Assembly (NCBI GenBank): GCA_005116885.1
Contig: SWDP01000036.1
Location: forward strand, 1-34,980
Source: Nitrospira sp.
GTDB lineage: Bacteria > Nitrospirota > Nitrospiria > Nitrospirales > Nitrospiraceae
Length of the DNA stretch: 34,980 nt
Direction of reading: 5' to 3'
The notes beneath the pieces are model-generated. The model saw nothing but the letters and a program-made list of their open reading frames with translations, made no database searches and was not told the DNA's origin. Made by a program: the position numbers and the translations under genes. Below, one piece after another: positions 24,651 to 31,210 of this stretch (position 1 is its first letter; each line of letters opens with the position of its first letter).

Positions 24651-24777
24651 GCAGGATGCTGAAAATGTCCGCCAGCGGCGTTCTCGGCTCGTCGAAATCC
24701 TCAACGTACCCCAGAGGGTACGCTTCCGGTTTCGATTTGCTTGCGGCTTTGCTGGACAACCTTTTTGAGCATCCTGC
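24651..24777. repeat. Family-1 palindromic repeat, copy A (MITE-like)
   Basis: A 127-bp unit bounded by GCAGGATGCTGAAAA and its near-complement ending TTTTGAGCATCCTGC. Inside, GTCCGCCAGC faces GCTGGAC, and GTACCC/GGGTAC makes a central hairpin, so the whole unit can fold on itself. It starts at the base after the argC stop. It aligns along its length with the unit at 30,199-30,320. I see no clear target duplication here. Confidence 0.82.
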
Positions 24778-29815: not shown

Positions 29816-29854
29816 GGGACAAACAAAATGGTCGGGAATCTTTCCAATCGCTCT

Positions 29855-29919
29855 ATTTGAAGACTTCTCCGACAACCCTCCTTTGCGCGACGGGACTGAA
29901 CTGCTCATACCATCCACAC
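29855..29919. repeat. Direct repeat, left copy, flanking the second toxin-antitoxin pair
   Basis: 65 bp matching 30,858-30,922 at 54 of 65 positions by my count, in the same orientation. It is followed by a C-rich stretch of short degenerate units such as CGCCTTACCCCTCA (29,926-29,980), and a similar stretch follows the right copy. Confidence 0.72.
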
Positions 29920-30002
29920 CCCTTACGCCTTACCCCTCAGGCATCTCGCGCCTCACCACTTACCCTTTACCCCTCACTACTTGCAGCGCACAGCAATCCT
30001 GG

Positions 30003-30480
30003 CTATCGATACACTTCGTCGTGGCTTCCGATATCGAACGGGACAATTTCCTTCTTGGTGACACGAAATGTCAGGGTGAGGCCGTAGGCATGGGTGACAC
30101 TCACGGCATGAAGCCCTTCTAGCAGGCTGCGGAAAAACTCAGTTTCTGCTCAAACTTCGCTGTGACCTTGCGAGTAATGATGTTGCAAGAACGGATTCCA
30201 GGATGCTCAAAATGGCCGTCCAGCGCGGCCGAAGCGAGCGAAGAGGCGAGGCCTACGCTTCGGTACATTGAGCTTCTGAGCGATGCGAGAACAAAGCTGG
30301 CGGACTTTTTCAGCATCCTGCTAGTTCTCCGTTGAGCGAATGCAATCGAAGGGACGAGAGAAAGGGGTTGGCTTCGAGATGTCTCAGCGCCTTGGCGAGG
30401 GGCTTTTTGAGTTCCGGGTGGGCTCGCGTAACCTTGACGACGCGCCGATCAAAATGGCCGGTCGTCAGCAGCACATACAT
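30003..30480 (-). pseudogene. RelE-type toxin gene split by a 198-bp insertion
   Basis: The 5' part (30480-30321) begins MYVLLTTGHFDRRVVKVTR, with HPELKKPLAKALRHLEANP after it, and the 3' part (30118-30003) encodes LHAVSVTHAYGLTLTFRV and ends IGSHDEVYR. These are the two halves of a RelE/YafQ-like mRNA interferase. Between them is a 198-bp element flanked by CTAG on both sides. Removing the element and one CTAG joins the halves in frame into 91 codons plus stop (160 + 116 bases). As it stands the frame stops within the element after ELAGC. The ATG overlaps the antitoxin stop as TGATG. The toxin is therefore probably inactive. Confidence 0.85.
30123..30320. mobile_element. MITE-like non-autonomous element with CTAG target duplication (family-1, copy C)
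   Basis: The 198-bp element is bounded by CAGGCTGCGGAAAAACTC and, read inward from the other side, CAGGATGCTGAAAAAGTC, which match at 15 of 18 positions as terminal inverted repeats. CTAG is present at 30119-30122 and 30321-30324. It has no coding capacity. The part 30199-30320 is the family-1 unit also seen at 24,651-24,777. A CTAG duplication fits the YTAR target known for the IS5 group, but the source transposase is not in the window. Confidence 0.82.
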
Positions 30481-30767
30481 CAGGCATCGAGACCCAGTTC
30501 GCCGATCAACGTCTGCGCCGTCACACGGCGCACTCGCCCTGCTTTCACATCTTTCAACGACCGGCGAATTCGTGAGATATACGACCGGCGATAGCGATCA
30601 GATAACTCGCGGAACTGATCTTCAGCCATGATCACATAGACCGGTTCGTTGTCCTTGAGGACATGCACTGGCCCACGTTTCAGGGCCTTGTCCACCGCTG
30701 AAAACCCGCGACGTCTGATCTCAGTGGCCGGTATGGTTCTTCGTGCTGCTGCGCTCGTGGTTCGCAT
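30480..30767 (-). CDS. Antitoxin of the disrupted toxin-antitoxin pair (Phd/YefM-like)
   Basis: A 95-residue protein. TIPATEIRRRGFSAVDKAL near the N-terminus and PVHVLKDNEPVYVIMAEDQF (about 33-52) show the strand-loop pattern of Phd/YefM-type antitoxins. The C-terminal KAGRVRRVTAQTLIGELG would bind the toxin. Its stop overlaps the toxin start by one base. The gene is intact although the toxin is not, so it may survive as an orphan regulator or as an anti-addiction factor against related toxins. Confidence 0.78.
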   Translation of the reverse strand: MRTTSAAARRTIPATEIRRRGFSAVDKALKRGPVHVLKDNEPVYVIMAEDQFRELSDRYRRSYISRIRRSLKDVKAGRVRRVTAQTLIGELGLDA

Positions 30768-30802: not shown

Positions 30803-30857
30803 GTCTCAAGACCAGAATGGGACAAACCAACGGGGTCGGGAGTCAGTTCAATTGCAC

Positions 30858-30922
30858 TATGTGAAGACTCGCCTGACAACCCTCCTTCGCGCAACGGGAC
30901 TAAACGGCTCAATCCATCCACA
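30858..30922. repeat. Direct repeat, right copy, flanking the second toxin-antitoxin pair
   Basis: Matches 29,855-29,919 in the same orientation, offset 1,003 bp. It shares GACAACCCTCCTT and ACGGGACT blocks and the CCATCCACA end. C-rich short units (about 30,946-30,968) follow here too. Confidence 0.72.
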
Positions 30923-31210
30923 GCACTAACCCGTCACACATCTCACGCCTTACCCCTAACGCCTCACTTTCACTGACATCAGTTTGACTTCTGACTATGA
31001 GAAGGCGCACGATGGCGTCCATTATTCATAAAATACAGAGGTGTATGGTGCCATTTTGCTAGTCTCGCCCAATCCAGCTATACAGAATCGTTCAAGAATC
31101 GAATCGCGCCCTCTCGGCAGACTTCGCCATGAGGACGTTATTGTTTGTGCAACAGTACCGACCATTGGGATGACGCCCAGTGTTTTAACCTCATCGAAAT
31201 GGAGATTGTG
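30923..31210. other. Intergenic stretch with no recognised gene
   Basis: Apart from the C-rich degenerate units near its left end I see no gene, RNA or repeat here. GC content is lower than in the neighbouring genes. It must hold the promoter of the small membrane protein gene, but no convincing hexamer pair stands out. Confidence 0.5.

What the first reader, a model, noticed from the sequence alone, without database searches (positions are those of the whole stretch)
30003..30480. A 198-bp MITE-like element has cleanly split a toxin gene, leaving an orphan antitoxin
The element at 30123-30320 has 18-bp terminal inverted repeats (15 of 18 matching) and is flanked by CTAG at both ends. Deleting it and one CTAG joins two RelE-like halves into a 91-codon frame with no other defect, so the insertion looks recent. 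The antitoxin, promoter and overlapping TGATG junction are intact. This gives the exact element ends and target duplication of a repeat family that elsewhere in the window has blurred edges. The YTAR-type target hints at an IS5-group transposase acting in trans.
Basis: partly seen in the sequence, partly recalled or inferred. Interest (0 to 1): 0.75.

Follow-up and report, generated by a model that had tools for sequence, protein, structure and literature searches.

The report
Nitrospira mini-transposon breaks a toxin gene
A 198-base non-coding jumping element, moved by a relative's IS5-type transposase, has landed inside the toxin gene of a toxin-antitoxin pair in a Nitrospira bacterium, and the same element family is scattered through every genome of the genus examined; this is a well-documented case of a familiar process rather than a new one.

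Summary
30123-30320 is a full-length MITE: 18-bp ends (15/18 matching), CTAG on both sides, inside a 91-codon RelE/YafQ-like toxin gene next to an intact antitoxin. Five same-genus (Nitrospira) genomes carry this locus with no insert at the site; four of them have an intact 91-residue toxin. The point left open by the palindromic CTAG is settled by the family: of 80 full-length copies, 41 have identical flanking 4-mers, 18 of these non-palindromic (shuffled mean 3.6), none reverse-complementary. So it is a true 4-bp YTAR duplication. The predicted partner exists: a 1314-1319-bp IS5-family element with the same 18-bp ends and YTAR duplications, in Nitrospira and other genera of the family, though not in this 84%-complete assembly. 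Only the ends are shared. New here: the element is asymmetric (18-bp end, drifting 58-nt spacer, conserved 122-nt hairpin core with compensatory changes); many copies sit exactly at gene stop codons; and the toxin at this locus seems to have been lost three ways in seven genomes (MITE, frameshift, deletion) while the antitoxin stays conserved. Ordinary mechanism, new family member, moderate interest.

The parts
30123..30320 (+). full-length MITE (198 bp)
   Evidence: same length class as the family (57 of 80 full-length copies are 197-199 bp); non-coding
30119..30122 (.). target-site duplication, left copy (CTAG)
   Evidence: sequence; 4-bp YTAR duplication shown on the family
30321..30324 (.). 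target-site duplication, right copy (CTAG)
   Evidence: sequence
30123..30140 (+). left terminal inverted repeat CAGGCTGCGGAAAAACTC, identical to an end of the IS in L180
30303..30320 (-). right terminal inverted repeat CAGGATGCTGAAAAAGTC
   Evidence: 15/18 match to the left end
30141..30198 (.). spacer, poorly conserved between copies (about 50-57% per 10-nt block for most of its length)
30199..30320 (.). 122-nt core, quasi-palindromic hairpin, conserved (84-100% per 10-nt block) with compensatory changes
30322..30480 (-). 5' part of the toxin gene (53 codons; frame runs into the element and stops after residue 56, stop at 30310-30312)
30006..30122 (-). 3' part of the toxin gene (39 codons, stop at 30003-30005)
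30480..30767 (-). intact antitoxin gene, Phd/YefM-like (weak: Pfam E 5.8e-6, below cut-off)
   Evidence: dN/dS about 0.1 against relatives
24652..24776 (-). second copy of the core in the window, with a decayed left end
30825..30967 (+). direct repeat bracketing the toxin-antitoxin operon (other copy 29821-29963)
   Evidence: only two copies in the genome

Best explanation
A non-autonomous IS5-type MITE inserted into a CTAG site about 58% of the way through a YafQ/RelE-like toxin gene of a Nitrospira, by transposition catalysed in trans by an IS5-family transposase, duplicating the 4-bp YTAR target. Shown: the element, its ends, the uninterrupted sites in relatives, the YTAR duplication across the family, and an IS with identical 18-bp ends and the same duplication in related genomes. 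Inferred: that this transposase (or a close relative, now lost or in the unassembled 16%) did the job, and that the toxin is dead while the antitoxin is still made. The split toxin would give a 56-residue product lacking the C-terminal part, and its message would also carry the strong hairpin of the element's core.
For: Site without insert in G003, G013, G024, G025 and G027, with an intact 91-aa toxin in the last four; the two halves align to adjoining parts of the intact homologues, sharing one column at the CTAG. Family: 32/32 genus genomes have the end motif, 24/32 have full-length copies. 80 non-redundant full-length copies: 41 identical flanking 4-mers (shuffled mean 15.0), 18 identical non-palindromic ones (CTAA, TTAG, GTAG and others; shuffled mean 3.6, 0 of 20,000 shuffles reach it), 0 reverse-complementary. 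Parent IS: L180/L200 in G021, 1319 bp, CTAG on both sides, ends CAGGCTGCGGAAAAACCA/CAGGCTGCGGAAAAACTC, intact 362-aa transposase over the NCBIfam IS5 cut-off (280.6 vs 140 bits) with DUF772 and DDE_Tnp_1. Relatives in 31 of 236 genomes of the order; 20 of 30 loci examined show paired ends, and most of these a matching 4-bp duplication.
Against: No copy of this transposase in the window's own assembly (assembly 83.9% complete). No two genomes of the same species were available, so presence or absence of the insert within a population is untested. Relatives have CTTG or TTGG where this genome has CTAG, so the exact pre-insertion sequence is inferred. Toxin family assignment rests on sub-cut-off profile matches.
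Confidence: 0.93

Rival explanations
1. An IS630/Tc1-type MITE with a 2-bp TA duplication and a 200-bp element (G...C ends), which the palindromic CTAG at this locus cannot exclude.
For: In the own-genome sample the inner base at each end looked more fixed than the outer one; IS630-family elements occur in the genus.
Against: Non-palindromic 4-mers match as direct repeats in 18 of 80 copies, including CTAA/CTAA, which breaks the fixed G. None of the 30 IS630 (PF13358) loci has these ends as a pair around the transposase. The IS that does have them is IS5-family with YTAR duplications.
Confidence: 0.02
2. A REP/RAYT-type palindromic repeat (HUH transposase, no target duplication) rather than a MITE.
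For: Very many palindromic core copies (about 220 first-look candidates), often without a recognisable left end.
Against: Target duplication and terminal inverted repeats shared with a DDE-type IS. Copies without a left end show no duplication at the inner core edge (0 of 46), so they look like eroded full-length elements rather than a separate mobile unit. A Y1 transposase (PF01797) search was not run.
Confidence: 0.04
3. The insertion is neutral debris: the toxin was already inactive, and the MITE simply landed in a dying gene. This is compatible with the best explanation and concerns its consequence only.
For: At the same locus G003 has a frameshifted toxin and G031 lacks it; the C-terminal part here has changes at conserved positions.
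Against: dN/dS between the halves here and relatives is still low (0.04-0.23) and the frame is otherwise intact.
Confidence: 0.35

Closest known systems
MITEAba12 / ISAba12 of Acinetobacter (PMC6382973)
   Same: short non-coding element whose ends, and only its ends, match an IS; many copies, about 40% with intact duplications; disrupts a gene
   Different: 113 bp with 9-bp duplications; here 198 bp with 4-bp YTAR duplications and a conserved asymmetric hairpin core
Chunjie MITE of Geobacter uraniireducens (as described in the review PMC10969869; original paper not held)
   Same: similar size (178-235 bp), tens of intact copies plus many partial ones, conserved ends and duplications
   Different: the sequence of its ends could not be compared here, so kinship is untested
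ISAzs10 (IS5 family, Azospirillum), nearest named relative found of the parent IS
   Same: transposase 63% identical; ends CAGGCCGCGGAAAAAGGG and TTAG/TTAG duplication
   Different: different phylum and diverged ends; the Nitrospira element is probably an unnamed IS (only plasmid records were searched for named relatives)
YafQ / RelE-family type II toxin with Phd/YefM-like antitoxin
   Same: intact relatives match YafQ_toxin (PF15738, E 1.8e-6 to 3.5e-5) and RelE_StbE; antitoxin upstream with overlapping TGATG
   Different: all profile scores lie below the curated cut-offs

Membership tests
MITE (non-autonomous DDE transposon) | short, no transposase gene | tested here: met
   198 bp; longest frame in it is a 65-aa ORF with no known relative sought, no room for a transposase
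MITE (non-autonomous DDE transposon) | terminal inverted repeats | tested here: met
   15/18; end motif and two-ended pattern far above control
MITE (non-autonomous DDE transposon) | target-site duplication | tested here: met
   4-bp, 41/80 identical, 18 non-palindromic
MITE (non-autonomous DDE transposon) | ends shared with an autonomous IS | tested here: met
   L180, L177 and family-wide loci
MITE (non-autonomous DDE transposon) | mobilised by that transposase | not testable with these tools
   needs a transposition assay
IS5 family (parent element) | DDE transposase of the family | tested here: met
   NCBIfam transpos_IS5_4 280.6 bits against cut-off 140; Pfam DUF772 and DDE_Tnp_1 over cut-off
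IS5 family (parent element) | YTAR 4-bp duplication (IS5 itself) | tested here: met
   CTAG, TTAG and CTAA pairs around the IS; YTAR for IS5 in PMC10359306
YafQ/RelE-type toxin | profile score over curated cut-off | tested here: not met
   best 28.6 bits vs 30 (Pfam), 32.6 vs 87.25 and 25 vs 27.9 (NCBIfam) for intact relatives
YafQ/RelE-type toxin | operon with upstream antitoxin and mRNA cleavage | tested here: inconclusive
   operon arrangement met; activity not testable

The most novel reading that the evidence does not exclude
The 122-nt core is not just transposon filler but a host-retained nucleic-acid hairpin. The element lands on YTAR, which contains a stop codon (TAG or TAA), so it duplicates the stop and leaves the gene intact while placing an A5 - GC stem - T5 hairpin just after it. 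Copies then lose their left end and spacer while the hairpin is kept by compensatory change, as a mobile two-way transcription terminator or mRNA 3'-end element spread over many Nitrospira genes.
Probability: 0.25. Interest if true: 0.6.

Novelty: new member of a known kind. Interest (0 to 1): 0.38.

Why it matters
It gives exact ends, target and a parent IS for a repeat family present in every Nitrospira genome examined; Nitrospira are key nitrifiers, and the paper search found no MITE description for them. It supplies uninterrupted-site evidence for one insertion. It also offers a natural series in which the toxin of one operon has apparently been lost repeatedly while the antitoxin persists, which makes orphan-antitoxin function testable. 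If the hairpin core proves to act at gene ends, it would be a case of a transposon spreading 3'-end signals.

Tried and rejected
PF01609 transposases in the own genome: IS5-type elements there also end at CTAG but have other ends. IS630 (PF13358) loci genus-wide: no paired ends. Long end-to-end intervals in the own genome: no transposase recognised by eye in the translated frames, no profile search run on them. Core as an independent mobile unit: no duplication at its inner edge. Rfam: no match. Orientation bias at stop codons: an apparent right-end bias in all copies was largely an artefact of unrecognised left ends; in full-length copies it is 22 left to 28 right. The remaining excess among eroded copies (19/32 vs 39/105, Fisher p 0.04) is weak.

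Full report
Observation. The window is part of contig 23 of a 3.19-Mb, 49-contig, 83.9%-complete assembly. The genus can be named Nitrospira because element copies found in its unnamed same-genus genomes recur at the same positions in titled Nitrospira records. The halves were not joined; they were aligned separately to intact relatives, where they meet at the CTAG, sharing one column.

Sites without the insert. Homologous antitoxins were found in six other genomes of the genus. G013, G024, G025 and G027 have a 91-residue toxin with no insert. G003 has no insert either, but its toxin is frameshifted around codon 37. In G031, the closest (antitoxin 94% identical), the antitoxin runs directly into a repeat of the kind that brackets the operon here and the toxin is missing there; the contig ends 95 nt further on. 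So three of seven loci have lost the toxin, apparently in three ways, while antitoxin dN/dS is about 0.1. Draft-assembly error cannot be excluded for G003 and G031. dN/dS of the two toxin parts against relatives is still low, so the insertion is young relative to species divergence (inference), but it cannot be dated more closely.

The family. The end motif has 135 matches in this genome (control 1) and occurs in all 32 genomes of the genus (controls 0); full-length copies occur in 24. A scan of species-representative genomes gave 72 stretches, nearly all Nitrospirota, with a few in Methylomirabilota, a deltaproteobacterial MAG, an unassigned MAG and Rhodoblastus. Eighty distinct full-length copies give the target rule: 41 identical flanking 4-mers, mainly YTAR, 18 of them non-palindromic, none reverse-complementary. 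This excludes the reading, open at this locus alone, that only TA is duplicated. A few of the 80 copies may be orthologous insertions and so not independent.

The parent. Among DUF772 transposases of the genus, G021 and G020 hold a 1318-1319-bp IS with exactly these ends. Its transposase is IS5 family. Relatives occur in 31 of 236 genomes of the order; 20 of 30 examined loci show paired ends, most with a matching 4-bp duplication. The nearest named IS found, among plasmid records only, is ISAzs10 at 63%. MITE and IS share only about 18-23 nt at the ends, as in MITEAba12/ISAba12. The own assembly has no such transposase.

Anatomy. The consensus of 57 copies shows a fixed 18-nt left end, a spacer of about 58 nt conserved at only about 50-57% for most of its length, and a 122-nt core 84-100% conserved. 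The core folds as a long hairpin in both strands. On 62 copies from this genome, 13 of 27 pairs show changes on both sides: 27 such cells against 3.6 in shuffles, and with the partner slid by 1-3 columns only 32-48% of cells pair against 97.7%. This could be selection on a hairpin, or template-switch correction between the arms of a quasi-palindrome; the data do not separate them.

Gene ends. In full-length copies a stop codon closing a frame of at least 60 codons abuts the left end in 22 and the right end in 28 of 80, against under 1 per offset in controls. YTAR contains TAG or TAA, so insertion there duplicates the stop and spares the gene. In the window 10 of 154 YTAR sites are gene stops, 26 are intergenic and 118 coding, so the excess can be explained by purging of coding insertions plus a roughly two-fold enrichment. 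The insertion inside the toxin is thus the atypical, gene-breaking kind.

Verdict. What remains open is whether the conserved hairpin has a host role.

Noticed in passing
29821-29963 and 30825-30967: A direct repeat (71-75% identical, only two copies in the genome) brackets the toxin-antitoxin operon; in G031 the antitoxin runs straight into such a repeat and the toxin is missing.
   Followed up: partly
L064 (G003): The toxin homologue is frameshifted at about codon 37 while the antitoxin is intact, a second kind of toxin loss at this locus.
   Followed up: partly
L182, L184, L192 (G005, G015): A sister IS5-type group with ends CAGGCTGTTGACAAAC and CTAG at its ends; a core copy with CAGGCTGTT ends (L079) hints that MITE subfamilies track different IS ends.
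   Followed up: no
L001-L060 (own genome): More than half of the eroded core copies (19 of 32) have a gene stop codon immediately next to their right end.
   Followed up: partly
L068, L070, L072: Three other IS5-type elements of this genome also have CTAG at their ends but with unrelated inverted repeats.
   Followed up: no
L231, L249, L269, L222, L278: Full-length elements with the same ends in a deltaproteobacterial MAG, Rhodoblastus acidophilus and Methylomirabilota, suggesting transfer across phyla or shared parent ISs (or MAG contamination).
   Followed up: no
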